DNA of 64,000 bases from positions 930,001-994,000 of the forward strand of contig NZ_UGNX01000001.1 in the NCBI RefSeq assembly GCF_900452415.1. Reading direction: 5' to 3'. The translations under genes were made by a program, and so were the position numbers. This DNA is from Legionella cincinnatiensis (GTDB lineage Bacteria; Pseudomonadota; Gammaproteobacteria; Legionellales; Legionellaceae). Under the pieces are notes generated by a model. It was not told where the DNA came from and made no database searches. It saw only the letters and a list, made by a program, of their open reading frames with translations. Of the stretch, positions 1-64,000 are shown piece after piece (within the stretch, counting starts at the first letter, position 1; every line of letters starts with the position of its first letter).

Positions 1-1170
1 AAGTGCGTATAAAGGAACAAAAGAAGCTTTAGGCACTGCGTTTGAATGGACTAAAACCAAGGGCTGGCCAGCCGTCCGCGATGCGACGGTAAGTGCGTAT
101 AAAGGAACAAAAGAAGCTTTAGGCACTGCGTTTGAGTGGACTAAAACCAAGGGCTGGCCAGCCGTCCGCGATGCAGCGGTAAGCGCGTATAAAGGAACAA
201 AAGAAGCTTTAGGCACTGCGTTTGAATGGACTAAAACCAAGGGCTGGCCAGCCGTCCGCGATGCGACGGTAAATGCGTATAAAGGAACAAAAGAAGCTTT
301 AGGCACTGCGTTTGAATGGACCAAAACCAAGGGCTGGCCAGCCGTCCGCGATGCGACGGTAAGTGCGTATAAAGGAACAAAAGAAGCTTTAGGCACTGCG
401 TTTGAATGGACTAAAACCAAGGGCTGGCCAGCCGTCCGCGATGCAGCGGTAAGCGCGTATAAAGGAACAAAAGAAGCTTTAGGCACTGCGTTTGAATGGA
501 CTAAAACCAAGGGCTGGCCAGCCGTCCGCGATGCGACGGTAAATGCGTATAAAGGAACAAAAGAAGCTTTAGGCACTGCGTTTGAATGGACTAAAACCAA
601 GGGCTGGCCAGCCGTCCGCGATGCGACGGTAAATGCGTATAAAGGAACAAAAGAAGCTTTAGGCACTGCGTTTGAATGGACTAAAACCAAGGGCTGGCCA
701 GCCGTCCGCGATGCAGCGGTAAGCGCGTATAAAGGAACAAAAGAAGCCTTAGGCACTGCGTTTGAATGGACTAAAACCAAGGGTTGGCCAGCCGTTCGTG
801 ATGCAGCGGTAAGTGCTTACAAGGGAACAAAAGAAACTTTAGGCACTGCGTTTGAGTGGACTAAAACCAAGGGTTGGCCCGCCGTTCGTGATGCAGCGGT
901 AAGTGCTTACAAGGGAACAAAAGAAGCTTTAGGCACTGCGTTTGAGTGGACTAAAACCAAGGGTTGGCCCGCGGTTCGCGATGCGGCGGTAAGCGCGTAT
1001 AAAAGAACAAAAGAAGCTTTGGGCACTGCGTTTGAGTGGACTAAAACCAAGGGTTGGCCCGCGGTTCGCGATGCGGCGGTAAGCGCGTATAAAAGAACAA
1101 AAGAAGCTTTGGGCAATGCTGTTGAACGGACAAAAACTAAAGGTTGGCCTGGAATCAAAGAAGCTGCTGA
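1..1170 (+). repeat. Tandem 90-bp coding repeat, 13 units
   Basis: Units begin at 1, 91, 181 and so on every 90 bp to 1081. Units 1-9 are almost identical; units 10-13 diverge toward the unique 3' end. Variants at the unit junction (gcgacggt or gcagcggt, followed by aagt, aagc or aaat) recur in blocks of three, so units 2-4 resemble units 5-7 and the start of units 8-9. This suggests 270-bp blocks were duplicated. Confidence 0.95.
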
Positions 1171-1921: not shown

Positions 1922-2123
1922 TTAACGTGAATTTCGGATCAAGGATCTATTGAGATCCAGCCTCCATCTTGAACCGTTCGGGCTGAGGAGGCATGCATGC
2001 CGTCTCGAAGCTTTAGTCCAGAACTTGAAAATTTGTACTAAGGCTTCGAGACAGTGCTATGCGCTTCCTCAGCCCGAACGGATCAAAGTAAAACCACGTT
2101 CTCTTATCCGAAACTCACGTTAA
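1922..2123. repeat. MITE-like palindromic element with cloverleaf core
   Basis: The ends are inverted repeats, TTAACGTGAATTTCGGAT at 1922-1939 and its complement with one mismatch at 2106-2123. The core has a 15-bp perfect outer stem (1974-1988 with 2067-2081). Inside it lie three arms: GGCATGCATGCC at 1990-2001, a 16-bp stem at 2002-2017/2037-2052, and a short AGTGC/GCGCT hairpin at 2053-2065. The core is related to those at 48020-48107 and 61.1-63.3 kb. No transposase is encoded. The remainder to 2338 is AT-rich and shows nothing I can assign. Confidence 0.85.
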
Positions 2124-25250: not shown

Positions 25251-26325
25251 TAATTTAACCATTTCTATGAAAAAGTGCCGACAGTGTCGGCACAATTCAA
25301 AGTTTCTCCAAAAGCGCTTTCAACTAAAAAATATGGAAAACCAGTTTAGTGTTGGTACACTAAATGATATTAGACGATTATACTTGCAAATTAGCCACGC
25401 GCTGCGTGGCTAATCTATTGAAATAGGATTAATCCGAATTTGAGCTGGATTTATCACCAAGCATTAATGGGGAGAAGAAGCGCATGTTATAATATTAAAT
25501 TAGGTCTGATCATCGTGAAACCAAAAGATAGGAGGGGAGAGGCTACATCAGCAAATAACATCTAAAAAGGCTGATTACTGTGAAAAGCAGACCGCGATAA
25601 AAAGTAATTTAATTAAGGACAAAGATAACTATATAGAAACTATTTATCACTCACAAACGTGCAATTGTCTGCACTTAAAAGGTTGATAATTTTAAAATTA
25701 AAATAAAAGCTAAACAACAAAATAATTTTTTAATAGATATCAAGATAAGTCGGGTAACAGGATCGAGTCGCCCCGATCCCGTCCCCTAAGAACGTAGCGT
25801 GCGACTTTCACCGCACTACGCTCAAGCCTTTCTAAGGCGAAAATCACCCAGCAGTTATTCGTCAGTAATTACATTCCGTTGCTTATCCAATTTTCATTGG
25901 ATAAGGGAAATATCTTTTATTAACTTCTGTCTATTTTCGAAGTATTCCTTGTACTCCAGTAAATAGAGATTAGCAGCGGTAAATAAATAAAAATGCCTTT
26001 ATTTTCATATGGTTAAATGGATTTATTTTGTATTTTTTACCGTTGATTCACCATAGGTTCACCACCGACATACCTTTATACATAAGTTTACAGCCGATTT
26101 TTTCCGTTTGCATTCAACATTCGGGTTACTTGATAACACTTTCATCTACTATTCAGCAATCTTTTCAAAAAAAATAGCCCGGAGGTTATAGGGATTAATA
26201 GATGTATTGCGACAAAGATTTTAAATTAGTTGCCATAAGATTTCTTTTCAATCGTCAAAACGCATTCAATTTGCACCCTATAATGACAATTCGGTTGGGG
26301 GACACCAAAACCCCATTGATTTCAT
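25251..26325. other. Long noncoding stretch with hairpins and intron remnant
   Basis: About 1.07 kb without a gene. It contains a perfect 8-bp hairpin GTGCCGAC/GTCGGCAC at 25275-25293 (U-rich only on the minus strand), a perfect 10-bp hairpin TTAGCCACGC/GCGTGGCTAA at 25391-25413, a 10-bp hairpin CTTATCCAAT/ATTGGATAAG at 25882-25905, and a group II intron-like remnant at 25743-25828. The rest is AT-rich and looks like decayed island DNA next to the tRNA. Confidence 0.55.
25743..25828 (-). ncRNA. Group II intron remnant
   Basis: Read on the minus strand, the segment has GTGCGGTGAAAGTCGCAC, a stem-loop strongly reminiscent of the conserved element in bacterial group II introns, followed by TTCTTAGGGG and ending TTACCCGACTT. 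No reverse transcriptase/maturase gene is nearby, so it would be a relic. This rests on my memory of such intron sequences and needs a covariance-model search. Confidence 0.45.
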
Positions 26326-47947: not shown

Positions 47948-48178
47948 TGTAACTCCCCATCTCATCCTGAGCGGAGCTATACCCACGAAATTTAAAAAAG
48001 TCCAGTCACTCTTTAGAACCGTTCAGCCTGAGGAGGGGCAAAATGCCCCGTCTCGAAGGCCTGCTGCAAGCTTCGAGACAGCGCTTTGCGCTTCCTCAGC
48101 CCGAACGAGCCCAGTCAAATCATCTTGTAGTTTAAATTTCGGGGGACAGATGAGTTCAGGAGAACGTGGGGAGTTACA
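47948..48178. repeat. MITE-like palindromic element with cloverleaf core, second locus
   Basis: The ends TGTAACTCCCCA (47948-47959) and TGGGGAGTTACA (48167-48178) are inverted; imperfect pairing continues inward to CGAAATTTAAA/TTTAAATTTCG. The core 48020-48107 has an outer stem (12 of 14 pairs) and three arms: GGGGCA/TGCCCC, GTCTCGAAG/CTTCGAGAC and AGCGC/GCGCT. Short open frames across it arise from the palindrome. The flanking 47847-47947 and 48179-48437 hold nothing else I can assign. Confidence 0.88.
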
Positions 48179-48437
48179 AAATATTTTACAACTCATTTTA
48201 ATTTTCTTTGTATAGACATCTACAGCACACCTAATTTCTATAAAAAAGATTAATATAGCCTTAACAAAATTCACTTTATATTCCTTCTTGTAATAGGCTA
48301 TTCATTTTATTCATTTTGATATCACTTAAGGTTAAGACTAATGTGTGAAAATAATACATATAGGATGGAAAGTTAACTAATTTTTAAATGCTCTTTTGGC
48401 TAAAAACCAAAAAAAACACTATATAGTGAGGGTTATT

Positions 48438-49622
48438 ATGTTTGACGAATTAATAAAAATCTTAGGGGATAAGGTCACAATGAAAAAGGATATTAGAGGC
48501 GCAATAGCGTTAAGTAAACATATTGCCTATCAAAAACATTTATCACCTATTTTATCTCTTTTAAAAAATGCACCTGAAAACAGTATCGATGTAGTTGTTT
48601 GCAATCAATTAATGAATAAGTTTAATAGAGATTGGGATTTTATATGTGCTGTTTACAATCTATTAATTGCTAAAGAAATAGCTAATGAAGCCAGCATTAA
48701 TAGTTTTATTACAATGGCTGGGAAAAATAAAAAGTTTGAAGCGGCACAAAATGCTTTTGAATTTGCTAAAACAAGGAAATTAGTTAATGAGATTACATTT
48801 AATAGTTTCATTGTGGTTGCAGGGAAAAATAGGCAGTTTCATGCAGCGCAAAATGCATTTGAATTGGCCAAAAAATGGAAATTGACCAATGCGATTACCT
48901 TCGCAACTTTTATTGATGTAGCTGGAAAGCATGGGCAATTTGAATTGGCGCAAAATACCTTTGAATTAGCAAAAAAATGTGGATTGCTCAATGAAGCTGC
49001 CTTTTCTAGTTTTATTGATGCAGCGGGTAAAAATGGACGATTTGAATTGGCGCAGAAGGCTTTTGAGTTAGCTAAAAACTGTAAATTGGTTAATGAAGTC
49101 ACTTTTGCAAGTTTCATTGATGCGGCGGGTAAAAATGGGCAATTCGAAATAGCCCAAAATACTTTTGCATTGGCTAAAAGCAGCAACTTAGCAAATCAGA
49201 TTACTTTTAATAGCTTCATTAATGCAGCAGGCAAGAATGGGCAGTTTACGGCAGCACAAAATGCGTTTGCACAAGCTAAAGAAAAAAGTTTGCTTGATCA
49301 GGTCACGTTCGCAAGTTTTATTAATTTAGCAGGGAAGAATGGAAAATTTGAAGCAGCTCAAAATGCCTTTGAGTTAGCTAAAGAATATAAACTAGTCAAT
49401 GAATTTACATTTAATTGTTTCATTAACATCGCAGGAAAAAATAGACAGTTTGAGGCAGCCCAAAGGGCTTTCGAATTAGCCAAAAAAATGAGATTGGCTA
49501 ATGCAGTTACGTTTACTAGTTTCATTGATATAGCCGGAAAAAATGGGCAGTATGAGGCGGCGCAAAATGCTTATGAGTTAGCTAGAAAATGGAAATTAAC
49601 GAATCATTCAAATGTTATTTAA
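48438..49622 (+). CDS. Pentatricopeptide repeat (PPR) protein
   Basis: Starting at 48438 (GAGGG upstream) the protein has 394 residues. From residue about 78 it contains nine exact 35-residue repeats of the type EVTFASFIDAAGKNGQFEIA then QNTFALAKSSNLAN, matching the plant PPR consensus (VVTYNTLIDGLCKAGKLDEA then LKLFEEM). PPR proteins bind single-stranded RNA, one base per repeat, and act mainly in plant organelles. They are rare in bacteria, though reported in Legionella such as L. longbeachae. Repeat ends are N, or D in repeat six. A host-RNA-binding effector is a reasonable guess. It lacks a signal peptide. Confidence 0.88.
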   Translation: MFDELIKILGDKVTMKKDIRGAIALSKHIAYQKHLSPILSLLKNAPENSIDVVVCNQLMNKFNRDWDFICAVYNLLIAKEIANEASINSFITMAGKNKKFEAAQNAFEFAKTRKLVNEITFNSFIVVAGKNRQFHAAQNAFELAKKWKLTNAITFATFIDVAGKHGQFELAQNTFELAKKCGLLNEAAFSSFIDAAGKNGRFELAQKAFELAKNCKLVNEVTFASFIDAAGKNGQFEIAQNTFALAKSSNLANQITFNSFINAAGKNGQFTAAQNAFAQAKEKSLLDQVTFASFINLAGKNGKFEAAQNAFELAKEYKLVNEFTFNCFINIAGKNRQFEAAQRAFELAKKMRLANAVTFTSFIDIAGKNGQYEAAQNAYELARKWKLTNHSNVI

Positions 49623-60503: not shown

Positions 60504-61036
60504 ATGAATTTGCCAATCAATTATCTAATTGGATGCTTTTAGCATTTGTGGTGGGTATTCCTTTATATGCTGCAGCAGTCAAGAAAATTAATGTATTTGA
60601 TGCGTTTATTGTTGGTGCAAAACAAGGTTTTGATACGATTTTAAATATAGTCCCTTATCTTATTGCGATGATAGTTGCTATTGGAATGCTACGAGCATCC
60701 GGTTTTTTTAGTTTAATGGCGAAATTACTGGCACCACTTCTTGCAATGATTGGTATGCCGCCTGAAGTATTACCTTTGGCTTTGATCCGACCGTTTTCTG
60801 GGAGTGCTTCAACTGGATTGATGGCAGAGTTAATTCATCAATATGGTGGCGATTCAATGATTGCTAAAATTGCAGCAACGATGATGGGAAGTACAGAGAC
60901 TACTTTTTACGTCATTGCAGTGTATTTTGGTTCTATAGGCATTCGTCGTACACGACATGCAATTCCTGCAGGATTATTAGCCGACTTAGCCGGTATTATC
61001 GCAGCAGTAATAATCTGTCGTTATTTATTTGGATGA
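60500..61036 (+). CDS. spmB: Spore maturation protein B-like membrane protein
   Basis: This 178-residue Gate-domain protein has GAKQGFDTILNIVPYLIAMI, RPFSGSASTGLMAELIHQYG and STETTFYVIAVYFGSIGIRR, typical of SpmB. It is the partner of the upstream gene (ATGA overlap). The C-terminal helices end PAGLLADLAGIIAAVIICRY. Substrate unknown. Confidence 0.92.
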   Translation: MNEFANQLSNWMLLAFVVGIPLYAAAVKKINVFDAFIVGAKQGFDTILNIVPYLIAMIVAIGMLRASGFFSLMAKLLAPLLAMIGMPPEVLPLALIRPFSGSASTGLMAELIHQYGGDSMIAKIAATMMGSTETTFYVIAVYFGSIGIRRTRHAIPAGLLADLAGIIAAVIICRYLFG

Positions 61037-61088
61037 CCCCCAGATTTTAGTTAGCTCTTTTGGTCTTACATTACCGTGAGTTTCAGAA

Positions 61089-63330
61089 AAAGAACTCCAC
61101 TCTCCATTTTGACTCGTTCAGCCTGAGGAGGAGCAAAATGCCCCGTCTCGAAGGCCTGGTATGCTTCTGTTAAGGCTTAGCGACAGCGCTATGCGCTTCC
61201 CCAGCCCGAACGATCTACGTGCAGAATCGATCTTTTTGGGAGGCTCTCTCAATTTTGGAGGCATAGGCATGGCTCGCAAAAATGAGTCCCCAGTCATTGT
61301 TTAGAGCCGTTCAGCCTGAGGAGGGGCAAAATGCCCCGTCTCGAAGGCCTGGTATGCTTCTGTTAAGGCTTCGAGACAGCGCTATGCGCTTCCTCAGCCC
61401 GAACGATCTACGTGCAGAATCGATCTTTTTGGGAGGCTCTCTCAATTTTGGAGGCATAGGCATGGCTCGCAAAAATGAGTCCCCAGTCATTGTTGAGAGC
61501 CGTTCAGCCTGAGGAGGGGCAAAATGCCCCGTCTCGAAGGCCTGGTATGCTTCTGTTAAGGCTTCGAGACAGCGCTATGCGCTTCCTCAGCCCGAACGAT
61601 CTACGTGCAGAATCGATCTTTTTGGAGGGCTCTCTCAATTTTGGAGGCATAGGCATGGCTCGCAAAAATGAGTCCCCAGTCATTGTTTAGAGCCGTTCAG
61701 CCTGAGGAGGGGCAAAAAGCCCCGTCTCGAAGGCTTGGAGGCTTCGAGACAGCGCTATGCGCTTCCTCAGCCCGAACGATCTACGTGCAGAATCGATCTT
61801 TTTGGGAGACTCTCTCAATTTTGGAAGCATAGGCATGGCTCGCAAAAATGAGTCCCCAGTCATTGTTTAGAGCCGTTCAGCCTGAGGAGGGGCAAAATGC
61901 CCCGTCTCGAAGGCCTGGTATGCTTCTGTTAAGGCTTAGCGACAGCGCTATGCGCTTCCTCAGCCCGAACGATCTATGTGCAGAATCGATATTTTTGGGA
62001 GGCTCTCTCAATTTTGGAGGCATAGGCATGGCTCGCAAAAATGAGTCCCCAGTCATTGTTTAGAGCCGTTCAGCCTGAGGAGGGGCAAAATGCCCCGTCT
62101 CGAAGGCCTGGTATGCTTCTGTTAAGGCTTAGCGACAGCGCTATGCGCTTCCTCAGCCCGAACGATCTACGTGCAGAATCGATCTTTTGGGGAGGCTCTC
62201 TCAATTTTGGAGGCATAGGCATGGCTCGCAAAAATGAGTCCCCAGTCATTGTTGAGAGCCGTTCAACCTGAGGAGGGGCAAAATGCCCCGTCTCGAAGGC
62301 CTGGTATGCTTCTGTTAAGGCTTAGCGACAGCGCTATGCGCTTCCTCAGCCCGAACGATCTACGTGCAGAATCGATCTTTTTGGGAGGCTCTCTCAATTT
62401 TGGAGGCATAGGCATGGCTCGCAAAAATGAGTCCCCAGTCATTGTTTAAAGCCGCTCAGCCTGAGGAGGGGCAAAATACCCCGTCTCGAAGGCCTGGTAT
62501 GCTTCTGTTAAGGCTTAGCGACAGCGCTATGCGCTTCCTCAGCCCGAACGATCTACGTGCAGAATCGATCTTTTTGGGAGGCTCTCTCAATTTTGGAGGC
62601 ATAGGCATGGCTCGCAAAAATGAGTCCCCAGTCATTGTTTAGAGCCGTTCAGCCTGAGGAGGGGCAAAAAGCCCCGTCTCGAAGGCCTGGTATGCTTCTG
62701 TTAAGGCTTAGCGACAGCGCTATGCGCTTCCTCAGCCCGAACGATCTACGTGCAGAATCGATCTTTTTGGGAGGCTCTCTCAATTTTGGAGGCATAGGCA
62801 TGGCTCGCAAAAATGAGTCCCCAGTCATTGTTGAGAGCCGTTCAACCTGAGGAGGGGCAAAAAGCCCCGTCTCGAAGGCCTGGTATGCTTCTGTTAAGGC
62901 TTAGCGACAGCGCTATGCGCTTCCTCAGCCCGAACGATCTACGTGCAGAATCGATCTTTTTGGGAGGCTCTCTCAATTTTGGAGGCATAGGCATGGCTCG
63001 CAAAAATGAGTCCCCAGTCATTGTTGAGAGCCGTTCAACCTGAGGAGGGGCAAAAAGCCCCGTCTCGAAGGCCTGGTATACTTCTGTTAAGGCTTAGCGA
63101 CAGCGCTATGCGCTTCCCCAGCCTGAACGATGTAAGTGTAGAATGGATCTTTATTGTTTTTTTGGAGATTCCCCTAAGTACCCAGAAAAATAAGGAGGAG
63201 CCCGTCATTATTTAGAACCGTTCAGCCTGAGGAGGGGCAAAATGCCTCGTCTCGAAGGCTTGGTATGCTCCTGTTAAGGCTTAGCGACAGCGCTTTGCGC
63301 TTCCTCAGCCCGAACGCTCCAAGTAGAGAG
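61089..63330. repeat. Tandem array of 193-bp palindromic units (about 12 copies)
   Basis: Units of 193 bp start near 61089, 61282, 61475, 61668, 61848 (after one 180-bp unit), 62041, 62234, 62427, 62620, 62813, 63006 and 63195. Each has the core CGTTCAGCCTGAGGAG to CTTCCTCAGCCCGAACG with internal hairpins GGGGCA/TGCCCC and AGCGC/GCGCT and a third arm from GTCTCGAAG; a linker with GGAGGCTCTCTCAATTTTGG follows. In most units the third arm reads cttagcgac instead of cttcgagac. The first and last units are the most diverged. The period is not divisible by three, and the many short open frames are by-products. Left and right flanks (61037-61088, 63331-63414) show no gene. Confidence 0.95.
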
Positions 63331-63414
63331 TCCGAGCAAAATGATTTTTTAGTTTAAATTTTGGGGGGATATCTCAGAACCCGAACGGTTCGATAAAGAT
63401 GCTATTTATTTTTT

Positions 63415-64000
63415 CTAGAGTTCATGGGATGCGCGATCTATAATGGGATGCTCTATTAATCGAGCTTTTTCACTAATATCCCTGCATTGAATCACATACA
63501 GTTGTTGATCGGCAATAATCCACTCAATATCCTGCGCTTTGCCAAATAAAGTTTCTAATTGACGTCCTAAGTGATATAAATCTTGGTATTGCTTCTTATT
63601 TAGTATATTTTTTTCACCTTGTTCATAGAAGGTTTGACCTTGTGCATTAATGTGTAATGATGCTAGAGCTCCATTACCTTCTGTTACTCCCTCAATTCCA
63701 TTACTTGCAACTTCAACGCACATTAAATCCGGAGTTTCACTTTCAGTAAATAATACACCACCCGCTTGTCCTTTAATGTAGGGTTGGATAATGAGATGTA
63801 AGTTTAATTCATTTTCTCCACTGTATTCTTTGACTATTGTACGCCTCTTTACCATGTTTTCCCATGAGGAGCAGATGGCTGAAATAAATTTGTCCATATT
63901 GTGGATATTGGCTTGAGAGTAAAATATCCCTGCATAACTGTAGGCACTTGAGTCTTCTACATTTGTTGATGAGCGTACAATAATCGGGGTATCTGTTGCT
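63415..64000 (-). CDS. PEP/pyruvate-binding (PPDK_N) protein, 5' end outside window
   Basis: The frame is open to the window edge, giving 195 residues. It begins with PIIVRSSTNVEDSSAYSYAG, matching the ATP-grasp region of PEP synthase and rifampin phosphotransferase (VRSSATAEDLPDASFAGQ), and has IIQPYIKGQAGGVLFTES and DIEWIIADQQLYVIQCRDIS. It stops about 20 residues after the ATP-grasp end, so the phospho-histidine and PEP-binding domains are absent, unlike full enzymes. The ATG at 63897 is internal, not the start. Its upstream domains decide its function. Confidence 0.82.
   Translation of the reverse strand, partial: ATDTPIIVRSSTNVEDSSAYSYAGIFYSQANIHNMDKFISAICSSWENMVKRRTIVKEYSGENELNLHLIIQPYIKGQAGGVLFTESETPDLMCVEVASNGIEGVTEGNGALASLHINAQGQTFYEQGEKNILNKKQYQDLYHLGRQLETLFGKAQDIEWIIADQQLYVIQCRDISEKARLIEHPIIDRASHEL

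What the first reader, a model, noticed from the sequence alone, without database searches (positions are those of the whole stretch)
61089..63330. Tandem array of about twelve 193-bp cloverleaf-forming units
Each unit holds a long inverted repeat that encloses three smaller inverted repeats. Units are nearly identical, so the array has recently expanded or is kept uniform by conversion. The period (193) is not a multiple of three, so it is not a protein repeat. There are no CRISPR-type variable spacers, because the linkers are conserved too. In most array units the second arm carries the same two-mismatch change, so that variant spread by amplification. This could be a mobile element amplified in place, a structured RNA locus, or a chromosome-organising site.
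Basis: partly seen in the sequence, partly recalled or inferred. Interest (0 to 1): 0.85.

Follow-up and report, generated by a model that had tools for sequence, protein, structure and literature searches.

The report
Tandem array of Legionella mini-transposon cores
The array is a run of twelve copies of the folded core of a small, gene-less jumping element that is scattered through this Legionella genome and often multiplies in head-to-tail rows; a half of the same element is already catalogued in Legionella pneumophila as a small RNA family.

Summary
The array is real: 12 copies, spacing 193 bp (once 180, once 187), window 61115-63316. Each core is two facing, non-identical REP-type hairpins. 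The genome holds 186 exact matches to one strict REP pattern (reversed control 0). In the 86 own-genome stretches scanned there are 160 REP pairs at 65 loci, 18 of them rows of three or more. Dispersed copies show what the element is: about 200 bp, inverted ends CGTGAGTT..GGATAA, and direct repeats of consensus TTAANTTAA on both sides; one relative has a probable unfilled site. That is a MITE, a transposon without its own transposase. REP and end counts go together across 45 genus genomes and do not follow REP-transposase (RAYT) genes. At 9 of 27 tandem loci, copies join end to end across one short stretch, mostly a single target copy, so rows grow by local duplication. Rfam LPR69, an L. pneumophila ncRNA family, matches each half of the element. 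The window array is a variant core that appears to lie inside a remnant of such an element; its own ends were not resolved. No transposase was found, and no host function is shown.

The parts
61115..63316 (+). tandem array of 12 core-plus-linker units, period 193
61115..61212 (+). core 1 (left REP 61115-61155, right REP 61174-61212 facing it); arm variant TTAGCGAC
61308..61405 (+). core 2 (unchanged arm TTCGAGAC)
61501..61598 (+). core 3 (unchanged arm)
61694..61778 (+). core 4, 13 bp shorter between its two REPs (unchanged arm)
61874..61971 (+). core 5 (variant arm)
62067..62164 (+). core 6 (variant arm)
62260..62357 (+). core 7 (variant arm)
62453..62550 (+). core 8 (variant arm)
62646..62743 (+). 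core 9 (variant arm)
62839..62936 (+). core 10 (variant arm)
63032..63129 (+). core 11 (variant arm), followed by the diverged linker
63219..63316 (+). core 12 (variant arm)
61071..61114 (+). remnant of the left end of an A-type element bordering the array (61075-61094 matches CGTGAGTTTCGGATAAAGAA with 2 mismatches)
   Evidence: 3 window matches against 0.02 expected in shuffles
63317..63399 (+). right border: end of a C-type shell, then CCCGAACGGTTCGA as in the right half of A-type elements (read by eye, not tested against chance)
1926..2119 (.). complete single A-type element: inverted ends, two facing REPs (1975-2012, 2042-2080); both halves hit Rfam LPR69 above its gathering score; its flanking 9-mers agree at only 7 of 9 positions
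48019..48107 (.). single dispersed C-type core (same core type as the array)

Best explanation
The array is a locally amplified core of a non-autonomous transposon (MITE). SHOWN: the core is two facing REP hairpins with different stems. In dispersed A-type copies it sits in a shell of about 200 bp with inverted ends CGTGAGTT..GGATAA, between direct repeats whose consensus is TTAANTTAA. SHOWN: many loci carry head-to-tail copies with unit lengths peculiar to the locus and mostly uniform within it, and at nine loci successive copies are separated by one 7-9 bp stretch, TTAANTTAA-like at most of them. INFERRED: a transposase acting in trans, probably of the DDE type because it duplicates its target, moves single copies into TTAANTTAA-like sites. 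A first tandem copy then arises by slippage or exchange between the flanking 9-mers, or by a second insertion into the target that each end restores, and unequal crossing-over lengthens and homogenises the row. INFERRED for the window: a variant (C-type) core entered an A-type element and then multiplied in place. The element is most likely selfish; any RNA function is secondary and unproven.
For: Strict REP pattern 186 hits against 0 for the reversed control; the looser pattern used for the locus table has 0 hits in one shuffle of the same 316 kb. Ends pattern 234 hits against 1. 71 spans from end to end under 300 bp, 48 of them 200-211 bp. In 45 stand-alone elements the 9-bp register of direct repeats has 308 identities, shuffled mean 282.3, highest of 1000 shuffles 298; the seven other registers tried stay within their shuffles. 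Probable unfilled site: relative G020 has a single TTAATTTAA and no element where this genome has TTAACTTAA on both sides of the element. 35 of 95 array junctions, at 9 of 27 tandem loci, read end + 7-9 bp + end; shuffled linkers give 0 in each of 100 rounds. Units are 92-100% alike within 15 of 18 arrays; the median between arrays, first units compared, is 63%. L. gratiana has under 50 bp where this genome has the array. REP and end counts correlate across 45 genus genomes (Spearman 0.71); REP and RAYT counts do not (0.19, p 0.21).
Against: No transposase gene flanked by these ends was found, so movement in trans is inferred. The excess in the target-duplication test rests mainly on the central base (29 of 45 against 11.6), because the rest of the target is nearly constant, and the outermost positions show no excess; 5 to 9 bp would fit that test. 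Only one unfilled site was found: its right flank aligns by BLAST, but its left flank only over 28 bp (19 identical; 30 of 1000 shuffles score as high), and its central base is T where both copies here have C. The second relative with both flanks, L. longbeachae, has about 500 bp of other sequence there. The window's own complete element has 9-mers that differ at 2 of 9 positions. The window's array units are the C-type core, for which no such junction was shown; 60 of 95 junctions lack the signature, and the stretch at L085 (CACACTCAA) is not close to TTAANTTAA. Three of 18 arrays are not uniform (means 0.82, 0.81, 0.47).
Confidence: 0.77

Rival explanations
1. It is a REPIN population in the strict sense: facing REP pairs copied by a resident REP-associated tyrosine transposase (RAYT).
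For: The core has REPIN form: two facing REPs, each a hairpin with strong covariation (97 cells with a change on both sides against 27.5 in shuffles), and the genome has an open RAYT-like gene, just over the Pfam cut-off (23.8 bits against 23).
Against: That RAYT is flanked by a different REP, GTAG-tagged GTAGCCTGGTTGCTTGCAACCAGG. Of eight loci with RAYT-related sequence scanned (L031 and L044 are one), only one, the fragment L046, has a pair of our REPs nearby, and it has its own GTAG-like hairpins; the loose pattern's other hits, in L031/L044 and L048, are not REP-like. 4 of the 13 genus genomes with 5 or more REPs, including G036 with 110 and G002 with 76, have no PF01797 match at E 0.001. 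Whole elements have end repeats and target-like direct repeats, which IS200-type transposases do not make (recalled).
Confidence: 0.12
2. It is a functional multi-copy ncRNA locus, the counterpart of the L. pneumophila lpr0001/lpr0049/lpr0069 family, kept for its RNA.
For: Both halves of the window element at 1926-2119 hit Rfam LPR69 above gathering (45.7 and 40.7 bits). PMC3048289 reports 20 copies, two confirmed by Northern blot, and higher expression in infection for some members (section 13 read).
Against: The LPR69 model stops at the transposon end (AACUCACG). Array units score below gathering (best 31.2). No promoter-like site in the array region. The same paper calls the expression of members uncoordinated and gives no established role. 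Copy number ranges from none to at least 145 among congeners.
Confidence: 0.06
3. The array is a chromosome-organising or gyrase-binding site of the E. coli BIME-2 kind.
For: REP pairs in tandem rows between genes; 63 of 65 loci lie between ORFs, 25 of them convergent.
Against: No binding data. Presence and copy number differ widely between relatives. The end repeats and direct repeats need no such role.
Confidence: 0.04
4. The array is an assembly artefact.
For: Repeats are where assemblies fail, and the reads could not be inspected.
Against: The main contig is 4.04 Mb and completeness is 100. Units carry private differences (a 13-bp deletion, a 187-bp spacing), and other arrays have different periods.
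Confidence: 0.01

Closest known systems
Rfam RF02823 LPR69 / lpr0069 ncRNA family of Legionella pneumophila (PMC3048289)
   Same: Same sequence family: the 82-nt model matches, over its whole length, each half of the window element 1926-2119. Multi-copy and strongly structured.
   Different: Described as an ncRNA family of 20 copies in strain Philadelphia-1; in the passages and section 13 that I read there is no mention of end repeats, target duplication or tandem arrays.
QMITE2 of Coxiella burnetii (PMC5896051)
   Same: A MITE of 150-190 bp with inverted ends, 7-11 nt direct repeats and a REP core, which gives rise to an sRNA (CbsR16); small versions are bare REPs (abstract, sections 8 and 10 and passages read).
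   Different: Its REP is called GTAG-tagged. 'Tandem' has 0 occurrences in the main text. Homology with our element was not tested; no Coxiella sequence was fetched.
REPINs / RAYT system (PMC3116915, search listing only)
   Same: Two facing REPs make the core; many dispersed copies.
   Different: No cognate RAYT found; end repeats and direct repeats outside the REP pair; arms nearly always unlike (2 of 112 alike).
GTAG- and CGTC-tagged REP superfamilies (PMC3733652; abstract, passages and section 16 read)
   Same: Facing dimers, frequent unlike partners, mostly between genes; dimers embedded in longer palindromes are mentioned there for two species.
   Different: The tag here is CGTTC and the inner motif TGAGGA..TCTCGAA, fitting neither tag; clusters are called rare for CGTC repeats. 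A GTAG family is also in this genome, beside the RAYT.
BIME-2 arrays of enterobacteria (recalled; PMC2817692 seen in a search listing only)
   Same: Tandem rows of alternating REPs between genes.
   Different: Here the repeated unit includes transposon ends, and locus-specific spacers at some loci.

Membership tests
MITE | short element without coding capacity, many copies | tested here: met
   about 200-bp elements; 160 REP pairs at 65 loci in the 86 stretches scanned
MITE | terminal inverted repeats | tested here: met
   234 pattern hits against 1 control; 71 end-to-end spans
MITE | target-site duplication | tested here: met
   9-bp register 308 identities against 282.3 shuffled, maximum 298; one probable unfilled site, weak on its left side. 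The exact length (5-9 bp) rests on the unfilled site and the junctions
MITE | autonomous partner with the same ends | tested here: inconclusive
   none seen among the listed ends in G000 and G002; the G000 listing was cut and no transposase-wide search was run
MITE | the window's C-type units themselves have ends and target duplication | tested here: inconclusive
   array linker shows no such junction; one C-type single (L113) has GTAACTCCCC ends and an 8-bp repeat AAATGATA, by eye, and the window single at 48019 has similar ends but no clear repeat
REPIN with RAYT | two facing REP hairpins | tested here: met
REPIN with RAYT | cognate RAYT gene flanked by the same REP | tested here: not met
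   the open RAYT is flanked by a GTAG REP; REP-rich genomes without PF01797 matches
GTAG REP superfamily | GTAG tag at one end | tested here: not met
   REP starts CGTTC
CGTC REP superfamily | CGTC (or TGTC, CCTC) tag followed by an 8-9 bp stem that begins with A-T residues | tested here: not met
   REP is CGTTCrGsCTGAGGA..TCTCGAAGsC, against the description in PMC3733652
Rfam LPR69 | score at or above gathering (40 bits) | tested here: met
   dispersed element at 1926-2119, two hits of 45.7 and 40.7 bits
Rfam LPR69 (array units) | score at or above gathering (40 bits) | tested here: not met
   best 31.2 bits
BIME-2 | binding of DNA gyrase | not testable with these tools
   no binding data
QMITE2 | sequence homology to the Coxiella element | not tested
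   no Coxiella sequence was fetched

The most novel reading that the evidence does not exclude
A satellite-forming class of bacterial transposon: an ancient REP-hairpin pair (a covariance model of the REP also matches 27 of 397 other genomes drawn from the phylum) has been captured by unrelated end-repeat shells in Legionella. Because each insertion restores its own TTAANTTAA target at its ends, the element grows into head-to-tail rows, bacterial satellite DNA, and the L. pneumophila 'infection-associated' ncRNA family is simply transcribed halves of it.
Probability: 0.3. Interest if true: 0.7.

Novelty: new variant of a known kind. Interest (0 to 1): 0.5.

Why it matters
It re-reads an Rfam ncRNA family of Legionella, so far reported as an infection-associated sRNA family, as half of a mobile element. 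It also gives a bacterial case, rich in examples within one genome, of a MITE turning into satellite-like arrays. Unit lengths that differ by locus make these arrays candidate variable-number markers. They also show an element with REP hairpins at its centre whose abundance does not follow the RAYT enzymes usually credited with REP spread.

Tried and rejected
CRISPR array: linkers are conserved, no variable spacers. Protein repeat: no ORF of 80 aa or more is listed within 61037-63414. RAYT-driven REPIN: tested and disfavoured. Cloverleaf as the conserved structure: in 28 C-type cores (chosen by their CCTGAGG arm) the cross-arm pair fails in 28 of 28 at head position 8 and in 28 of 28 at tail position 9, while within-arm pairing there holds in 54 of 56 with G-C swapped for C-G, so the two-hairpin form is preferred. 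Against that, the within-arm pair hit by the TCGCTAAG change is broken in 16 of 56 arms, and in the covariation test the number of pairs with any double change (7 against 6.0) is no higher than in shuffles; the excess is in cells and score. Plasmid carriage: two searches of 72,556 plasmid records found nothing at E 1e-5 (the genome's own or near records may be left out). Terminator function: 7 terminator-like sites against 3.2 expected (sd 2.0), not pursued. Literature: LPR69 under that spelling gave no paper. Searches for Legionella with REPIN or RAYT, with MITE, with repeat and palindrome words, and for lpr0069 with mobile-element words gave, among the rows listed (title and start of abstract), none that describes this element as mobile; a search for MITEs in tandem likewise. 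Only open-licence PMC papers are in that library. PMC2267715 was searched for Legionella: 0 occurrences.

Limits: REP counts of 145 or 150 per genome are floors, and the phylum draw scored only 16 candidates a genome. Pattern listings were cut at about 100 places, so the 65 loci are not the whole genome. The locus table comes from a fuzzy pattern (up to 3 + 2 mismatches); its only shuffled control is one round. For one search I dropped spans under 120 or over 260 bp and those within 60 bp of another (45 of 71 kept). For one search I dropped identical arm pairs within a locus (112 of 131 kept). For the alignment A1 I used 71 of the 131 REPs listed. One search left out spacings of 360 bp or more. 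Only two of the 51 relatives' loci held the downstream neighbour gene.

Full report
Window 61115-63316 carries 12 copies of a repeat: nine spacings of 193, one of 180 (unit 4, which lacks 13 bp between its two hairpins) and one of 187. Each unit is a core of about 98 nt plus a linker of about 95 nt; ten linkers are alike and the last one differs. The array lies between convergent genes: a Gate-domain gene ending at 61036 and a gene with PPDK_N, PEP-utilizers and rhodanese domains on the minus strand ending at 63415. In L. gratiana the same two genes are under 50 bp apart, with no array. Of the 51 relatives' loci scanned around the first gene, 49 have no REP and two (L129, L151) have one each; only two of the 51 held the second gene, L. 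gratiana and L. longbeachae.

The core is a pair of REP-type hairpins facing each other, CGTTCrGsCTGAGGA - 5-bp stem - loop - stem - gTCTCGAAGsC. On 71 REPs from this genome the hairpin pairs in 97.3% of cells, with 97 double-change cells against 27.5 in shuffles and a covariation score of 0.369 against 0.170; sliding the partners by one to three columns drops pairing to 33-44%. The number of pairs with any double change (7 against 6.0) is not above shuffles. The two arms of a pair almost never carry the same stem: 2 of 112 against 18.6 expected from random pairing. In the window's core type (C-type) the left arm has AGCCT/AGGC where the right has GGGCT/AGCC. Each arm keeps its own pairing there while pairing between arms breaks, so the conserved form is two separate hairpins, and the cloverleaf follows from their facing arrangement.

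The genome is full of them. A strict pattern has 186 hits, its reversed control none. In the 86 own-genome stretches scanned (the window included) I count 347 REPs, 160 pairs and 65 loci; 27 loci have two or more pairs and 18 have three or more; one shuffle of the same bases gives 0 REPs. Periods differ by locus (191, 193, 195, 202, 204, 238, 254-256, 293, 301, 349 bp and others). Within arrays units are 92-100% alike at 15 of 18 loci; between arrays the median is 63%. That pattern means local amplification or homogenisation. By a simple ORF rule most loci lie between ORFs: 25 convergent, 29 co-directional, 9 divergent, 1 inside an ORF, 1 undetermined.

What moves was read from dispersed copies. 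They have common ends CGTGAGTTnnGGATAA in inverted orientation; of 71 end-to-end spans 48 are 200-211 bp. Outside the ends the sequence is TTAANTTAA-like on both sides with the same central base: 29 of 45 against 11.6 in shuffles, whole register 308 against a shuffled maximum of 298. At C1:1960055 the element is flanked by TTAACTTAA twice; relative G020 has a single TTAATTTAA there. The right flank of that site aligns well; the left flank aligns only over 28 bp (19 identical, 30 of 1000 shuffles as good), and L. longbeachae has about 500 bp of other sequence, so this is a probable, not a proven, unfilled site. Together these are the mark of a transposon that duplicates its target, most simply 9 bp. 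Seven spans of 128-141 bp have a shortened core, in six of them a single hairpin by eye.

Arrays of this A-type join in a telling way. In 35 of 95 junctions, at 9 of 27 loci, the right end is followed by one short stretch and then the left end of the next copy: TTAANTTAA exactly at four loci, TTCACTTAA at two, TTATTTAA, TTCACTT and CACACTCAA at one each; shuffled linkers never gave it. A tandem row with a single shared target copy is expected from exchange or slippage between the flanking repeats, or from insertion into the restored target. The head-to-tail order favours the former, since a palindromic target should give both orientations (inference).

The window array is C-type. Its left border, 61071-61114, is the left end of an A-type element, and its right border has CCCGAACGGTTCGA, as in the right half of A-type elements. 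Other loci (L112, L115, L110) show C-type cores inside A-type elements in the same way (by eye). So the likely history is nesting followed by amplification. The two-base arm change is in 9 of 12 array units and in 7 arms at L033, L035, L110 and L118, so it is a property of part of the C-type family rather than of this array alone.

RAYT enzymes are not the obvious mover. The one open RAYT-like gene found in the genome is flanked by a GTAG REP of another kind. Across 45 genus genomes REP and end counts go together (Spearman 0.71, p 5e-8), REP and RAYT counts do not (0.19, p 0.21); all 13 genomes with 5 or more REPs have two or more ends, 9 of 13 have a RAYT match. In all, 23 of 45 genus genomes have the REP. 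Named genomes rich in it are L. shakespearei and L. nautarum (150 scored, a floor), MAG BO158 (110) and L. massiliensis (75); L. santicrucis has 17, L. gratiana 8, L. longbeachae 1; 16 of 28 named genomes have a match. In a draw of 398 genomes from the phylum, 28 including our own have matches. In seven loci read from seven of these, all with GC 0.62-0.64, the same TGAGGA..TCTCGAA design is seen, mostly as unlike facing pairs by eye. Whether these are the alphaproteobacterial relatives of QMITE2 reported in PMC5896051 (section 10) was not tested.

The link to what is known is Rfam RF02823, LPR69. Both halves of the window's complete element at 1926-2119 match the model from first to last position, above gathering, and the model ends at the transposon end. 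The source paper (PMC3048289, section 13 read) reports 20 copies in L. pneumophila Philadelphia-1, expression by Northern blot for two, and likens the family to quorum-sensing sRNAs; it found none in L. longbeachae, where I find one REP match. The Coxiella paper PMC5896051 (abstract, sections 8 and 10, passages) is the nearest precedent in kind: a REP-containing MITE that gives an sRNA. I therefore rate this a new variant of a known kind. The new points are the re-reading of LPR69 as a mobile element and the satellite-like arrays; the transposase and the function remain open.

Noticed in passing
G000:C1:1696996-1697517 (L032/L044) and places listed: An open RAYT-like gene between GTAG REPs; more than a dozen other places match only its first 20-30 codons. 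At the four of these looked at (L048-L051) the same GTAG REPs are present, as if small elements carry the 5' piece of the gene.
   Followed up: partly
window 1-1149: 90-bp tandem repeat, 12.8 copies, 94% matches; the period is a multiple of three, so possibly a protein repeat.
   Followed up: no
window 48733-49598: 102-bp tandem repeat, 8.5 copies, 70% matches, inside ORF 48396-49622.
   Followed up: no
window 25749-25825, minus strand: Rfam group II intron match (RF00029, 55 bits), about 500 bp from a tRNA-Pro gene.
   Followed up: no
L113 (C1:3137066), L119 (C1:869832), window 48019: C-type cores sit in other inverted-repeat shells: GTAACTCCCCA ends with an 8-bp repeat AAATGATA at L113, and CTACGTCCCGCGACTTGTTCCTGAGAGA ends at L119 (by eye).
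   Followed up: partly
L037, L038, L087, L088, L092, L097: Array linkers share a spacer hairpin (CCCGTGGCTTGTCCACGGGAGCC or close) between right and truncated left ends (by eye).
   Followed up: no
L092 (C1:1054002-1056319): Two copies of the same REP-pair doublet 1.93 kb apart with the same 174-nt linker, a larger duplication.
   Followed up: no
L260 and L261 (C1:3510755, C1:3164044): Arrays with long units (301 and 349 bp) whose spacers carry sequence not seen at the other arrays, as if host flank was amplified with the element.
   Followed up: no
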